From Christensenellaceae bacterium (GTDB lineage Bacteria > Bacillota > Clostridia > Christensenellales > Aristaeellaceae): a stretch of 64,000 nucleotides of DNA. Under the pieces are notes generated by a model. It was not told where the DNA came from and did no database searches. It worked only from the letters and a program-made list of their open reading frames with translations. This document shows positions 24,573 through 30,539 of the stretch, one piece after another (position 1 is the stretch's first letter; every line of letters begins with the position of its first letter). The translations under genes were made by a program, and so were the position numbers. Location: assembly GCA_012518615.1 (NCBI GenBank), contig JAAYRU010000002.1, positions 1-64,000 on the forward strand. Direction: 5' to 3'.

Positions 24573-26441
24573 TTGAGAAAACGTATCATTTCCCTGATTC
24601 TTTCCCTGGCAATGCTTTTGTCGCTTTCTAGCCTAGTAATGGCAGAAACATTCGAAGGCGAAGCTGAAGGCTATGGCGGCAATCTTAAGGTAGCTGTTAC
24701 CATAGAAGATGGCAAAGTAACCAATATTGAAGTGCTGGAATCCCTCGAAACCGCAGGCATTTCCGACCCCGCATTTGAAAGGGTACCCCAGGCAATTATC
24801 GACAACCAGTCCGTAGCGGTTGACACGGTAGGCGGTTGCACCCTAACTAGCAATGCCCTAATAGAAGCTGTTACAGCAGCATGGCTCGCTTCAGGCGCTA
24901 GCCTTGAAGACATATCCAAAGAAGTCGCAGTAGAAGCAGGCGAAAAAGAGCTTGAAACTAAGACTGCCGATGTAGTAATAATAGGCGCTGGCGGTTCCGG
25001 CATGACGGCAGCGGTAGAAGTACTGCGCGCAGGCGGCAGCGTACTACTTATCGACAAAATGCCCTCTATAGGCGGCAATACCATAGCAGCGGGTTCTGCC
25101 CTTAATGCCGCAGGCAGCGAAATCCAAAAGACAGGCACCATGGCAGCTTCCAGCATAGAAGCGGTTGAAGAGCTGCTAGCCCTCGAAGCCAAGAACGATG
25201 ACATGAAGCGCTGGCAGGAGAGCATCCGCAAGGATCTTGACGCCTATATCGCTTCCGGTGAAAACTATGTGTTTGACACTGTAGACCTTCACAAACTGCA
25301 AACCTACGTAGGCGGCGACTATGTTGCTAACACCGCTTTGCTTGATGTATTTGGCGATGGAGCTCCCGGCGCGCTTGATTATCTTGAAGAGCTTGGCATG
25401 GAATGGCAGCCGAGGATTACTGCGGCAGTCGGCGCTACATGGCAGCGCTCACACCAGCCCGCCCGTGTATTTGGCGGCGCAGGCAGCGACTTTGTGCTTC
25501 CCCAGTACAACTTTGTAAAGGAAAACGGCGGCGAATTTGCCCTTGAGCATAAGGCTGATGAGCTAATCGTAGAAGACGGACGAGTAGTTGGCGTAAAGGG
25601 CGCTGCAAATGACGGCACTCCCTTTGAATTCCGCGCAAACAAGGGCGTTATACTTGCAACCGGCGGCTTTGGCGCCAATGTTGAAATGCGCCAGAAATAT
25701 AACACCTTCTGGGCAACCCTAGACGAAAGCGTTCCCACAACCAACCAGCCCTGCGCAACCGGTGACGGTATTGAAATGGCGCTTGCGGTTGGAGCTAACC
25801 TAGTTGGCATGGAATGGATACAGATTATCCCCTCCGGCGATGCCAGCCTGTCCGCTTCAGTTGCGAACGAAATGTACATAAACAATGAAGGCAAACGCTT
25901 TGTAGCAGAAGACGAGCGCCGCGACGTTCTCTCCGGTGCAATACTTCAGCAGCCTGATACTTTCTGCTGGAAGATATCAAGCGGCTACTCCGTAGACGAT
26001 ATCCAGCAAGGTTACGACTACAAGGGCAACAAGATTGTAGACCTAGTTACAGCCGGAAAAGGCTACTTAGGTGATACAGTTGAAGAGCTTGCCAATGAAA
26101 TAGGCGTAGATGCTGAAAACCTTAAGGCAGAAGTAGAAACCTTTAACAAAGCCTTTAACGGCGAAATAGAAGACCCCTTCGGCCGTAAGCTCTACGAGTA
26201 CCCCATGGACAAGGGACCGTACTATGCAACTCTTTGCTATGCCAAGGTTCACCACACAATGGGCGGCGTTGAAATTAACACCAACTGTGAAGTGCTTGAT
26301 ACCGATGGCAATCCTATACCCGGCCTATTCGCCTGCGGCGAAGTTACCGGCGGCATACACGGCGGCAACCGCTTGGGCGGCAACGCAATTGCAGATATTA
26401 TAGTGTTCGGTCAGATTGCAGGTAAGAACGCTGTAAAGTAA
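24573..26441 (+). CDS. Secreted FMN-binding/FAD reductase (fumarate/urocanate reductase-like)
   Basis: A 622-residue flavoprotein. A signal peptide (to about residue 24, VMA-E) is followed by an FMN-binding domain (about 26-110) with the flavinylation-type motif DTVGGCTLTS. Its Thr would carry covalent FMN, although the usual SGAT is GGCT here. Then comes a fumarate-reductase-like FAD domain starting DVVIIGAGGSGMTAA (about residue 130), with the closing GGIHGGNRLGGNAIAD segment. Such secreted reductases pass electrons to an organic acceptor outside the cell (fumarate, urocanate, cinnamates and others), and the acceptor cannot be told here. It starts with TTG after AAAGGAGGAG. It lies just upstream of the pyruvate formate-lyase block, which fits a role in anaerobic electron disposal. 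Confidence 0.87.
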   Translation: MRKRIISLILSLAMLLSLSSLVMAETFEGEAEGYGGNLKVAVTIEDGKVTNIEVLESLETAGISDPAFERVPQAIIDNQSVAVDTVGGCTLTSNALIEAVTAAWLASGASLEDISKEVAVEAGEKELETKTADVVIIGAGGSGMTAAVEVLRAGGSVLLIDKMPSIGGNTIAAGSALNAAGSEIQKTGTMAASSIEAVEELLALEAKNDDMKRWQESIRKDLDAYIASGENYVFDTVDLHKLQTYVGGDYVANTALLDVFGDGAPGALDYLEELGMEWQPRITAAVGATWQRSHQPARVFGGAGSDFVLPQYNFVKENGGEFALEHKADELIVEDGRVVGVKGAANDGTPFEFRANKGVILATGGFGANVEMRQKYNTFWATLDESVPTTNQPCATGDGIEMALAVGANLVGMEWIQIIPSGDASLSASVANEMYINNEGKRFVAEDERRDVLSGAILQQPDTFCWKISSGYSVDDIQQGYDYKGNKIVDLVTAGKGYLGDTVEELANEIGVDAENLKAEVETFNKAFNGEIEDPFGRKLYEYPMDKGPYYATLCYAKVHHTMGGVEINTNCEVLDTDGNPIPGLFACGEVTGGIHGGNRLGGNAIADIIVFGQIAGKNAVK

Positions 26442-26598: not shown

Positions 26599-26614
26599 TG
26601 TGAGTCTAATCACA
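26599..26614 (+). promoter_or_regulatory. CRP-type operator upstream of pflB
   Basis: TGTGA-GTCTAA-TCACA is a perfect match to the CRP half-sites TGTGA and TCACA with six bases between. Its centre (26606.5) lies 41.5 bases before the transcription start inferred from the -10 at 26636-26641, the standard class II activator position. The likely binder is the CRP-type domain encoded at 29814-30539. Confidence 0.75.
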
Positions 26615-26641
26615 GACAATATGTGGTATACTGTGTATAAT
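26613..26641 (+). promoter_or_regulatory. pflB promoter with weak -35
   Basis: CAGACA, 17 bases, TATAAT. The -35 is poor and is overlapped by the TGTGA/TCACA site, as expected for an activator-dependent promoter. The leader to the ATG is about 58 bases. Confidence 0.65.
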
Positions 26642-26705
26642 TAGTATGGTTAAGCTAACTTATGTTTAAAGCAATACTAACATATATTAAACGGAGGTAA
26701 GAGAG

Positions 26706-28955
26706 ATGTTTGAAAAAGCTTGGGCAGGCTTTACAAGAGGCAACTGGTCGGAAACTATTGACACGAGGGATTTTATCCAAAAAAACTACAAACCTTATTT
26801 AGACGATGAGGATTTTTTAACAGGTGCAAGTGAAAATACGCTCGCTCTATGGCAACAGGTGAGCGATTTGATACAGGACGAAATAAAAAATAAAACCATC
26901 ACTGTAGATACTACTAAATTCAGCGGCATAGATAACTTTGAAGCGGGTTATATAGATAAAGATAAAGAACTTATAGTAGGTCTTCAGACCGATGCACCCA
27001 TGAAAAGGATTATGAACCCCTACGGCGGTATGCGTATGGTTGAAAACTCGCTTAAAGCTTACGACATAGAAGCGCCGCAGATAATGTTTGATGATTTTAA
27101 TGAATTTAGAAAAACGCATAACCAAGGCTGCTTTGACGCATACACTAAAGAAATGAGAAGAGCAAGGTCTGCATCCCTAGTTACAGGGCTTCCCGATGCA
27201 TACGGCAGGGGCAGAATTATTGGCGATTACAGAAGAATAGCTCTCTACGGCATAGATTACCTTAAAGAGATAAAAATAAAGGACAAGGAAAACCTTGTCG
27301 GTCCTGCAACGGAGGATATGATAAGGCTTAGGGAAGAGCTTACAGAGCAGATAAGAGCCTTTGACAGCATTAAGGCTATGGCTGCAAAATACGGCTATGA
27401 TATAGGCAGACCCGCCGAAAACGCACAGGAAGCCATACAGTGGCTATACTTTGGCTACCTTGCCGCAATTAAAGAGAATAACGGCGCCGCCATGTCCCTT
27501 GGCAGAAACACTACCTTTATAGACATCTATATCGAAAGGGATTTGCAAAACGGCGCTCTAACGGAAGAACAAGCACAGGAACTTATAGACCAGCTTGTAA
27601 TTAAGTTGCGCCTTGTAAGGCATCTGCGCACCCCCGAATATGACGAGCTTTTCGCAGGCGACCCCACTTGGGTAACGGAATCCATAGGCGGCATGGGAGA
27701 AGACGGCAGAACTCTAGTTACCAAAACCGCTTACAGATTCCTGCACACGCTTGATAACATGGATACATCGCCCGAGCCCAATTTAACCGTGCTTTGGTCT
27801 GAAGATTTACCCATAGCGTGGAAAGACTACTGCGCCAAGATGAGCCTTAAAACCGGCTCCATACAGTACGAAAACGATGACCTTATGAGAAGCATTTACG
27901 GTGATGACTATGCAATCGCCTGCTGCGTATCAGCTATGAGAGTCGGCAAAGACATGCAGTTTTTCGGCGCCAGAGCAAACATAGCAAAAGCACTGCTCTA
28001 TGCTATAAACGGCGGCGTTGACGAGGTAAGAAAAGAAAAGGACGGCAGCCCCTACAAGGTTATGGATAATATAGAGCCCATAAGCACCGAATACCTAAAT
28101 TACGAAGATGTGCTAAATAACTACAAAAAAGTTATGGATTCACTTGCAGAGCTTTATGTAAACACCATGAACACCATACACTACATGCACGATAAATACG
28201 CCTATGAAGCAGGGCAGATGGCGCTGCACGATAGCGAAGTCCACAGGTACATGGCGTTTGGTATAGCAGGTCTATCTGTTGCGGCAGACTCTCTAAGCGC
28301 ATTAAAATATGCCAAGGTAAAAGCTTTAAGAGATGAAAACGGCTTAGTGGTAGACTTTGAAGTAGAGGGCGATTTCCCTAAATACGGCAATGATGACGAT
28401 AGAGCGGACGACCTTGCTGTAGGCATAACGGAATACTTCTCTAACGCCCTTAAAAAGCATGAAACTTATAGGAATTCAGAGCATACTCTGTCTATACTTA
28501 CCATCACTTCCAATGTTGTATACGGAAAGAAGACAGGCAGCACGCCCTGCGGCAGGAAAAAGGGAGAGCCTTTTGCGCCCGGCGCAAACCCCATGCACGG
28601 CAGGGATTCAAGTGGAGCCTTGGCATCGCTTAACTCCGTAGCAAAGCTCCCCTACGAATGCGTGTGCCAAGACGGCATATCCAACACCTTCTCTATAATC
28701 CCCACAACCCTTGGCAAAACCGAGTACGAGAGGACGGATAACCTAAGGAACATTATGGACGGCTACTTTAAGAAAGACGCATTCCACATAAATGTAAACG
28801 CGCTTGAAAAGGAAACTCTGCTTGACGCTATGGAGCACCCCGAAAAATACCCCAACCTTACTATAAGGGTTTCAGGATATGCGGTTAGGTTTATTCAGCT
28901 TGATAGAGAACATCAGCTTGATGTAATAAACAGAACTTTCCACGAAAAGCTATAA
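26706..28955 (+). CDS. pflB: Formate acetyltransferase (pyruvate formate-lyase)
   Basis: A 749-residue glycyl-radical enzyme converting pyruvate and CoA to acetyl-CoA and formate without oxygen. The catalytic cysteine pair lies in [10 protein letters not shown] (Cys406 and Cys407 by coordinate). The glycyl-radical motif [10 protein letters not shown] puts the radical glycine at residue 724, near the C-terminus as expected. The length is close to E. coli PflB (760). ACGGAGG precedes the ATG. The gene is followed by a hairpin and then by its activase, which is fused to a CRP-type regulator. Confidence 0.96.
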
Positions 28956-28970
28956 TTTTCTATTAGCATT

Positions 28971-29002
28971 AAATAAAGCCCTAAATACTTGGGGCTTTAT
29001 TT
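28971..29002 (+). terminator. Hairpin between pflB and its activase gene
   Basis: AAATAAAGCCC (28971-28981) and GGGCTTTATTT (28992-29002) form a perfect 11-base stem with a ten-base loop. The stem ends in T-rich sequence but without a long T run, so it may terminate only in part and set a high ratio of PflB to activase. Confidence 0.7.
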
Positions 29003-29033
29003 ACATAATATTACATATGAAGGGGCGATAACA

Positions 29034-30539
29034 TTGCAAAAGCAAGGAACAGTAGGTTTCATACACTCTATAGAAACATTCGGGCTGCTCGACGGTCCCG
29101 GGGTTAGAACTATATTTTTCCTGCAGGGCTGTCCCTTAAGATGCGCCTACTGCCACAACCCGGACACTCAAGATGTAAAAAAGACTAACCCCTATACCCC
29201 TCAGGAGATACTGGAAACCGTTAATAAATATAAATCCTACCACGGGAGCGATGGCGGAGTAACTTTTTCAGGGGGAGACCCGCTTTTGCAGGGTAAATTC
29301 CTAGCTGAAACCGTGCAGCTGCTAAAGAAAAACGGCATAAATGTAGTGGTTGATACATCCGGTTTTGGCGATAAAAGGTATTACAAGGATATATTCCCCT
29401 ATGTAGATACCCTGCTGCTTGATGTAAAAGCCTTTGATAAAGAAAGCTTTAAAAAACTGGTGGCGGGAAACTTTGATACCTTTATAGATTTGATAAATTC
29501 CCTTCCTGATTACGGTTTTAACGGGCAGATATGGATAAGGCATGTTATGGTACCTGGGCTTTCCGACAACGAAGAATCCATGAGGAAGCTAATAAAAACG
29601 GTAGAACCTATAATGCCTTATATAGAAAGGATAGAGATACTGCCATACCACACTATGGGTATCGCAAAGTATGAAGAGCTAAACCGCCCCTATCTTTTAG
29701 AAAATGTTCCGCCTATGGATAAAAACAAGGCTAAGGATTTTGAAATATACGCAAACAGAATATACGCTGAAAGAGTGCAGGAATTAAGAAGCGAACAAAA
29801 GGAGCGTGATAAAGTGCAAAATAGCGCAAATGACATAGTATATTCAGATAAGGAAAAATACAGGGATATTATATTCAACGATGAAAGCCTGTTTGAAAAT
29901 GTTTCGCCAGAAATAAAGGATGAAATATTCGATAAGCTTATTATTTCTAATGTGGAAAGAGGCGACTTTATTTTCCAAAGCAGCGATAGAGCCTTAAATA
30001 TGTATGTAATTCTAGACGGGGAAGCTAAAATATATTACAACACGCTTGAGGGCAAGGAGCAGATTTATTACATATATAAAAAGGGCGATTTTATAGGCGG
30101 GCACAACCTGCTAAGCGGGGAAGATTATCTATATAACGCTCAAGCCATATCCAAGGTGACGGTGCTTTCCATATCTAAGGAAATTTTTGATAAATATATG
30201 CTGGATAATCCGAAGGTTTTAAGAAAAATACTAGCCAAAAGCTTTGAAAGAATTAGACATGCAGAAAACTTGGTTTTGAGGCTTTCAACCACAAATACAT
30301 CATTAAAAGTTGCGGCGCTACTGCTAAAGCTTATTGAAAGGCAAAACCTAGAGTATGAAGATAATATAGAATTAAACCTTTCCCTAACCCGCGAGGAGCT
30401 TGGAAACTATTCCGGTCTTACAAGGGAAACCGTAACAAGAAAGCTTTCCGAATTTAAGGAGCTTGGCTATATAGATATAATAGGCAACAAGACCATAGTA
30501 ATAAAAGACATGGAAATGCTTAAAAATTACAGCATGTAA
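29034..30539 (+). CDS. Pyruvate formate-lyase activating enzyme fused to CRP/FNR-type regulator
   Basis: A 501-residue fusion. Residues 1-260 are PflA: a radical-SAM CxxxCxxC motif at Cys33, Cys37 and Cys40 (GCPLRCAYCHNP), a GGVTFSGGDPLLQ segment and the normal PflA length. Residues 261-501 are a whole CRP/FNR-family protein: a cyclic-nucleotide-type beta barrel (about 285-395), a long dimer helix and a helix-turn-helix with SGLTRETVTRKLSEF. The recognition helix keeps the R-E-x-x-x-R of CRP. The regulator half has no cysteine, so it is not an FNR-type iron-sulfur sensor, and CRP's cAMP-contact Glu and Arg positions are not kept. I chose the TTG at 29034 because AGGGG lies eight bases upstream. 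An internal AAAGGAG-GTG at the junction may also give a free regulator. Confidence 0.88.
   Translation: MQKQGTVGFIHSIETFGLLDGPGVRTIFFLQGCPLRCAYCHNPDTQDVKKTNPYTPQEILETVNKYKSYHGSDGGVTFSGGDPLLQGKFLAETVQLLKKNGINVVVDTSGFGDKRYYKDIFPYVDTLLLDVKAFDKESFKKLVAGNFDTFIDLINSLPDYGFNGQIWIRHVMVPGLSDNEESMRKLIKTVEPIMPYIERIEILPYHTMGIAKYEELNRPYLLENVPPMDKNKAKDFEIYANRIYAERVQELRSEQKERDKVQNSANDIVYSDKEKYRDIIFNDESLFENVSPEIKDEIFDKLIISNVERGDFIFQSSDRALNMYVILDGEAKIYYNTLEGKEQIYYIYKKGDFIGGHNLLSGEDYLYNAQAISKVTVLSISKEIFDKYMLDNPKVLRKILAKSFERIRHAENLVLRLSTTNTSLKVAALLLKLIERQNLEYEDNIELNLSLTREELGNYSGLTRETVTRKLSEFKELGYIDIIGNKTIVIKDMEMLKNYSM
29798..29816 (+). promoter_or_regulatory. Internal ribosome site and GTG at the activase-regulator junction
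   Basis: AAAGGAG (29798-29804), nine bases, then an in-frame GTG (29814) exactly where the CRP-type module begins. A TGA (29807) in another frame lies between them. The arrangement looks like the remains of two separate genes joined by loss of frame, and it could still start a free 241-residue regulator. Confidence 0.6.

What the first reader, a model, noticed from the sequence alone, without database searches (positions are those of the whole stretch)
29034..30539. Pyruvate formate-lyase activase fused in frame to a CRP/FNR-type regulator
The sequence shows one open frame with a complete radical-SAM activase (CxxxCxxC at 33-40) and a complete CRP-family protein from residue 261. Activase and regulator are normally separate. 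Joining them would tie the enzyme that switches on PflB to the protein that controls its gene. The regulator half has no cysteines, so any oxygen or redox sensing would have to come from the activase iron-sulfur cluster or from PflB binding. That last point is inference.
Basis: partly seen in the sequence, partly recalled or inferred. Interest (0 to 1): 0.82.

Follow-up and report, generated by a model that had tools for sequence, protein, structure and literature searches.

The report
PFL activase fused to its regulator
In this bacterium and in many relatives, the protein predicted to switch on the fermentation enzyme pyruvate formate-lyase is one chain with a CRP-family DNA-binding protein that likely turns on that enzyme's own gene, through a DNA site whose full ten-letter form occurs once in this genome, directly in front of that gene.

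Summary
The fusion is real. All 120 listed relatives (of 611 hits) carry both halves in one protein. Here and in 21 of 21 other fused genomes searched, the fused protein is the only one over the PFL-activase cut-off.

New here is the likely circuit. A perfect TGTGA-N6-TCACA occurs once in the 2.2 Mb genome, at 26599-26614 before pflB, about 41.5 bp before the predicted transcription start. Its GTGA-N6-TCAC core precedes pflB in 31 of 32 fused loci and 17 of 17 unfused pflB-pflA-crp operons, but in 0 of 19 pflB genes without this regulator. A -10 box starts exactly 22 nt after the site in 38 of 48.

Most likely the protein is both sole activase and class II activator of its own operon. The cAMP pocket is replaced by conserved tyrosines and an asparagine that unfused regulators share, so the signal probably enters there, not through the activase cluster (inference). 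Fused proteins are not one clade (p-AU 0.0003), so fusion arose, or arose and was undone, more than once. Seven paper searches listed no description of it.

The parts
26599..26614 (+). Predicted operator TGTGAGTCTAATCACA (TGTGA-N6-TCACA)
   Evidence: Only match with up to 1 mismatch in the window; only perfect match in the genome; core GTGA-N6-TCAC conserved before pflB in relatives
26613..26641 (+). Predicted pflB promoter CAGACA-17-TATAAT; operator centre about 41.5 bp before the predicted start near 26648
   Evidence: 10 of 12 letters; -10 box 22 nt after the site also in relatives; start site itself not mapped
26706..28955 (+). pflB, formate C-acetyltransferase, 749 aa
   Evidence: TIGR01255 1195 bits; only PflB match at E <= 1e-100 in the genome
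28956..29012 (+). pflB-activase intergenic stretch with a 15-pair predicted RNA hairpin
   Evidence: -19.6 kcal/mol, z -6.2; not general in relatives
29034..30539 (+). Fused gene: PFL activase joined to CRP-type regulator, 501 aa, start TTG
29034..29741 (+). Activase half, residues 1-236, CxxxCxxC at 33-40
29742..29873 (+). Linker, residues 237-280, mostly one long predicted helix (230-263), low confidence at 262-269
29798..29816 (+). Possible internal ribosome-binding site AAAGGAG and GTG start (residue 261); could give a free regulator of about 28 kDa
   Evidence: Sequence; not conserved in relatives; mass
29874..30536 (+). Regulator half, residues 281-501: cNMP-type barrel and Crp helix-turn-helix with R464, E465, R469

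Best explanation
The gene at 29034-30539 encodes a single protein that is predicted to be both the cell's only pyruvate formate-lyase activase and the likely transcriptional activator of its own pflB operon. Shown: one frame with both domain sets; a fusion conserved in many relatives; a CRP-type palindrome before pflB, unique in the genome, whose core goes with this regulator in other genomes and keeps a fixed distance to a -10 box. Inferred: (1) regulator halves pair and bind GTGA-N6-TCAC; (2) bound about 41.5 bp before the start they contact RNA polymerase as class II activators and raise pflB and fused-gene transcription, a self-amplifying loop; (3) the signal is a small molecule other than cAMP in the tyrosine-rich pocket of the regulator half; (4) the activase half puts the glycyl radical on PflB as PflA does; (5) the fusion fixes activase and activator at 1:1 and makes the activase dimeric, so that the supply of PFL and of its activase rise and fall together.
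For: Fusion in 120 of 120 listed homologues and 35 of 79 regulator loci. Sole protein over the PFLA cut-off here and in 21 of 21 other fused genomes searched, of 35 fused loci at hand. Cluster cysteines invariant in 56 aligned fused proteins. Recognition helix with CRP's R180, E181, R185 (their DNA contacts recalled), matched by TGTGA-N6-TCACA, once in the genome. Core site before pflB: 31 of 32 fused, 17 of 17 three-gene, 0 of 19 without the regulator. -10 box (5 of 6 or better) at exactly 22 nt in 38 of 48; next commonest offset 4 of 48. Poor -35 boxes, mean 2.5 of 6. -41.5 is the class II place of CRP (PMC5957442, passages). Pocket: Y346, Y348, N358, E411 invariant in 35 fused, 18 three-gene and 17 unlinked regulators.
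Against: No binding, expression or activity data exist. One fused locus, L056, has no core site. One site with up to one mismatch in 64 kb is expected by chance (77 of 100 shuffles), so the case rests on place and relatives. The operator overlaps the -35 region, so repression is possible. GTGA-N6-TCAC occurs only 6 times in the genome against 14 for the reversed control: no sign of further targets. Five of ten genomes with an unlinked regulator had no PflB match, so the regulator type is not bound to PFL. L145 is a fused protein that lacks the barrel.
Confidence: 0.7

Rival explanations
1. Trigger enzyme: the activase half is the sensor. Loss of its [4Fe-4S] cluster, SAM occupancy, or docking on unactivated PflB would change DNA binding by the regulator half, so that transcription follows the state of the activase.
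For: The activase occupies the N-terminal place that carries the oxygen-sensing cluster in FNR (FNR layout recalled; A. fischeri FNR is the top solved relative of the regulator half). The regulator half has no cysteines of its own. Fused proteins are not one clade (p-AU 0.0003), so fusion may bring an advantage.
Against: Unfused regulators share operator and pocket and so work without the activase attached. The linker has a low-confidence break (262-269).
Confidence: 0.22
2. The fused protein represses pflB: it binds over the -35 region and holds the promoter shut until a signal or PflB docking releases it.
For: The operator overlaps the -35 hexamer. PutA and BirA are enzyme-repressors of their own operons (PMC6978683, passages).
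Against: The fixed 22 nt to the -10 box in 38 of 48 and poor -35 boxes (mean 2.5 of 6) are the pattern of activator-dependent class II promoters. The window's own -35 box is better, 4 of 6.
Confidence: 0.12
3. Two products: an internal start at GTG 29814 makes a free regulator beside the fusion, and the free form does the regulating.
For: AAAGGAG nine bases before GTG in frame, the longest match to the ribosome-binding consensus among 35 fused linkers.
Against: Such starts are not conserved: 10 of 35 linkers with a match of 5 nt or more, against a control fraction of 0.20 in other parts of the same genes.
Confidence: 0.15
4. Assembly or sequencing error that joins two neighbouring genes.
For: Stops TGA and TAA lie in another frame just at the junction, and three-gene operons exist in relatives.
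Against: 120 of 120 listed homologues are fused, an isolate genome (Neofamilia massiliensis, L057) among the fused loci, and P0165 reads through the junction.
Confidence: 0.01

Closest known systems
Pyruvate formate-lyase-activating enzyme PflA (E. coli, 3c8f/3cb8; TIGR02493)
   Different: PflA ends there; here a linker and a full CRP-type regulator follow
CRP (E. coli, 1g6n)
   Same: Barrel and helix-turn-helix, R180/E181/R185 kept, TGTGA-N6-TCACA site at the class II place
   Different: cAMP-pocket positions E72, R82, T127, S128 are G356, Y365, A410, E411; joined to an enzyme; only one perfect site in the genome
FNR (A. fischeri, 5cvr/9qlt)
   Same: Closest solved relatives of the regulator half
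   Different: No cysteines in the regulator half; helix R-E-T-V-T-R where FNR has V-E-T-I-S-R; an entire activase in the N-terminal place
Unfused pflB-pflA-crp operons (Tissierella creatinophila L064, Anaerococcus L086/L087/L099, Peptoniphilus L089)
   Same: Same gene order, same operator and -10 spacing, same pocket
   Different: Activase and regulator are separate proteins
Trigger enzymes PutA and BirA
   Same: Enzyme and DNA-binding regulator of its own genes in one chain (PMC6978683, passages)
   Different: Those are repressors; here a radical-SAM activase carries a predicted CRP-type activator, and gating by the enzyme's state is not shown

Membership tests
PFL-activating enzymes (TIGR02493) | Score over the curated cut-off | tested here: met
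   253.1 against 231.75 bits
PFL-activating enzymes (TIGR02493) | CxxxCxxC cluster motif | tested here: met
   C33, C37, C40, invariant in 56 aligned fused proteins
PFL-activating enzymes (TIGR02493) | PFL-type partner enzyme in the operon | tested here: met
   pflB directly upstream, TIGR01255
PFL-activating enzymes (TIGR02493) | Installs the glycyl radical | not testable with these tools
   Needs an anaerobic activation assay
CRP/FNR superfamily | cNMP-type barrel followed by Crp helix-turn-helix | tested here: met
   PF00027, PF13545, PF00325 over cut-off
CRP/FNR superfamily | Palindromic site at a regulated promoter | tested here: met
   By sequence only; binding not shown
CRP proper (cAMP receptor) | cAMP-contact residues E72, R82, T127, S128 (roles recalled) | tested here: not met
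   G356, Y365, A410, E411
FNR proper | Own cluster cysteines in the regulator | tested here: not met
   No cysteine after residue 40
Trigger enzymes (PutA, BirA type) | Enzyme and DNA-binding domain in one chain beside its own pathway gene | tested here: met
Trigger enzymes (PutA, BirA type) | State of the enzyme controls DNA binding | not testable with these tools
   Needs binding assays with cluster-free and PflB-bound protein

The most novel reading that the evidence does not exclude
A radical-SAM enzyme that reads its own working state onto DNA: the activase half, by its cluster, its SAM or its grip on PflB, gates a class II activator in the same chain, so the cell makes new pyruvate formate-lyase only while it can still activate it.
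Probability: 0.22. Interest if true: 0.88.

Novelty: new variant of a known kind. Interest (0 to 1): 0.66.

Why it matters
If right, one polypeptide both raises the supply of an oxygen-sensitive radical enzyme and charges it, tied together by a single promoter site. Nature offers the comparison ready made: fused and unfused versions with the same operator and the same unusual pocket. This makes it testable what an enzyme and its regulator gain by fusing, and it exposes a branch of CRP-type regulators with an unknown, non-cAMP ligand in fermenting anaerobes.

Tried and rejected
Frameshift artefact: rejected. Conserved dual product from an internal start: rejected for the family (10 of 35 linkers, control fraction 0.20), open for this genome. 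cAMP as ligand: unlikely. A wider regulon here: GTGA-N6-TCAC occurs 6 times against 14 for the reversed control; of the other five places none has a box with 5 of 6 letters of TATAAT at 22 nt. L138, outside long open frames, has one at 20 nt, and L139 has one at 23 nt but inside a 314-codon frame. A first scan with all ten palindrome letters chose other places in some loci and was replaced by the eight-letter core. In one search the choice of -10 favoured 22 nt on ties; one search counts offsets without that bias. Rows dropped before the counts: L112 (the window again), L114 (same genome as L054), L006 and L008 (same pflB genes as L132 and L133); L059 (three-gene) was never scored because its PflB is partial, hence 17 of 18. 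L143 and L144 repeat L072 and L083. L145, first taken as a case with an unlinked regulator (note), turned out to follow a fused gene that lacks the barrel, so only L146 and L147 are cited as such. The tree used 52 regulator-linked systems and 16 of the 19 controls; L080 was relabelled fused because its activase part is cut by the contig end. A hairpin between pflB and the fused gene is not general (5 of 15 intergenic stretches of 30-250 nt with z under -2). Papers: searches listed none that describes such a fusion (listings only; the library lacks most subscription papers). Searches were background, concerned split PFL. The dimer and the PflB complex were not modelled.

Full report

Not an artefact. 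A search of 5.8 billion proteins gave 611 hits among the scored candidates, and each of the 120 listed has Radical_SAM, cNMP_binding and HTH_Crp_2 in one protein. A scan of GTDB species genomes with the regulator half kept 79 loci: 35 fused, 18 with pflB, pflA and the regulator as three neighbouring genes, and 26 without linked pfl genes, among them one cut by a contig end (L044) and 8 distant Bacteroidota proteins (L080, cut by a contig end, is counted as fused as). Many are metagenome-assembled, but Neofamilia massiliensis (L057, fused) and several three-gene cases (Tissierella creatinophila, Anaerococcus, Peptoniphilus) are named strains. P0165, from a contig whose source is not shown, is damaged elsewhere but reads through the junction in frame.

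The activase half should work. The fused protein is the only one over the PFLA cut-off in this genome and in each of 21 other fused genomes searched, of 35 fused loci at hand. PflB has one match at E <= 1e-100 here. C33, C37 and C40 are invariant in 56 aligned fused proteins. Among 59 other genomes around this one, 20 have pflB at that level, none of the 5 of the same genus, and only G024 (the genome of L054) shows the fusion in the listed rows. The cassette is patchy, which suggests horizontal transfer or repeated loss (inference).

The operator. The recognition helix aligns with E. coli CRP at R180, E181 and R185 (R464, E465, R469), so a TGTGA half-site was expected (CRP contacts recalled). 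TGTGAGTCTAATCACA stands at 26599-26614, the only match with up to one mismatch in the window and the only perfect TGTGA-N6-TCACA in the 2.2 Mb genome (reversed control pattern 0). One such match with up to one mismatch in 64 kb is no surprise (77 of 100 shuffles), so the weight lies on its place and on the relatives. The core GTGA-N6-TCAC lies within 300 bp upstream of pflB in 31 of 32 distinct fused loci (window included; L056 is the miss), 17 of 17 three-gene loci scored, and 0 of 19 pflB genes without this regulator. Letter-shuffled upstream regions show it in 37 of 14,400 (rows before de-duplication). A box with at least 5 of 6 letters of TATAAT begins exactly 22 nt after the site in 38 of 48, a perfect one in 24 of 48; the next commonest offset has 4 of 48. 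This puts the centre about 41.5 bp before the predicted start, the class II place of CRP (PMC5957442, passages read). The -35 boxes are poor, mean 2.5 of 6, though the window's has 4 of 6. In two genomes where no regulator match follows the activase within the stretch held (L146, L147) and the regulator gene was found elsewhere, pflB still carries the core and a -10 box of 6 and 5 letters at 22 nt.

Who binds it. The genome has four places over the HTH_Crp_2 cut-off: the fusion, two CRP-sized proteins, and a match in a 458-residue frame that was not examined. At the position of E181 the two CRP-sized proteins carry serine and valine (aligned by eye), so the fusion is the best candidate.

The pocket. 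Relative to E. coli CRP, positions S62, L64, E72, G74, R82, A84, T127 and S128 are Y346, Y348, G356, N358, Y365, Y367, A410 and E411. Y346, Y348, N358 and E411 are invariant in 35 fused relatives, 18 three-gene and 17 unlinked Firmicutes-type regulators; G356 varies in the three-gene group (G10, A8), A410 in both unfused groups (A11 S5 I2; A11 S6), and Y365 and Y367 are F in 2 of 18. Of these eight positions the 8 Bacteroidota proteins share only Y346, Y348 and Y365. cAMP is therefore unlikely and another ligand likely (inference). Of ten genomes with an unlinked regulator that were searched (of 26 such loci), five had no PflB match, so the signal is probably broader than PFL; two of the other five also hold a fused locus.

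Evolution. On a tree of PflB plus activase, without the regulator's columns, 50 of 52 regulator-linked systems lie on one side of a fully supported branch; the two exceptions are three-gene loci of another PFL lineage (L093, L101). The fused label needs 4 changes, at least 3 by starred branches. Holding all fused rows as one clade is rejected (p-AU 0.0003); without L063 and L066 it is not (p 0.087) (that second group was named after the tree was seen). L063 and L066 have the shortest linkers, 36 and 30 residues. Fusion thus arose more than once, or arose and was undone. These are short-search trees, and the window's place in the regulator tree is unsure.

Operon form. In 24 of 34 fused and 10 of 18 three-gene loci the activase begins within 18 nt of the pflB stop or overlaps it (starts estimated from alignments), so co-transcription is likely. 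In this window 78 nt lie between, with a strong predicted hairpin (-19.6 kcal/mol, z -6.2) that might lower activase relative to PflB (inference; not general).

Internal start. AAAGGAG-9-GTG at 29798-29816 could give a free regulator of about 28 kDa here, but such starts are not conserved (10 of 35; control 0.20).

Literature. Seven searches listed no paper that describes an activase-regulator fusion; only listings were read. PutA and BirA are enzyme-repressors of their own operons (PMC6978683, passages). A study of CRP/FNR domains in about 6,000 genomes (PMC12531629, start of abstract and passages) has no occurrence of 'fusion' or 'pyruvate formate' in its main text.

Verdict. A real, conserved fusion that formed, or formed and split, more than once, with strong comparative evidence that its regulator half controls its own operon. 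What is sensed, and whether the state of the activase matters for it, remains open.

Noticed in passing
L093, L101, L132, L133, L146, L147: Pyruvate formate-lyase is split: the main part stops at about residue 672-683, and the glycyl-radical domain of about 80 residues matches a separate stretch just downstream. One paper search listed nothing on it.
   Followed up: partly
L145 3017-4105: A 362-residue fused protein with activase and a diverged regulator helix-turn-helix but no cNMP-type barrel; the same genome holds a full unlinked regulator (L076) and keeps the operator core before pflB.
   Followed up: partly
window 28956-29012: Strong predicted RNA hairpin between pflB and the fused gene, z -6.2; found in only some relatives.
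   Followed up: partly
L138 (G000 contig 12, 21943-21956): A second GTGA-N6-TCAC outside long open frames with a -10-like box at 20 nt; no gene of 80 or more codons begins within 350 nt. Unexplained.
   Followed up: partly
L069 5944-11232: In Miniphocaeibacter massiliensis, which had no PflB match, the unlinked regulator gene stands upstream of genes that look by eye like NADH-linked iron hydrogenase subunits, a possible other target.
   Followed up: no
L091 5916-5929: In an Ezakiella genome GTGA-N6-TCAC lies just before the unlinked regulator gene itself, without a good -10 box.
   Followed up: no
window 24573-26441: Upstream gene with FMN-binding and FAD-binding domains, of the kind seen in flavin-based fumarate-type reductases (recalled).
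   Followed up: no
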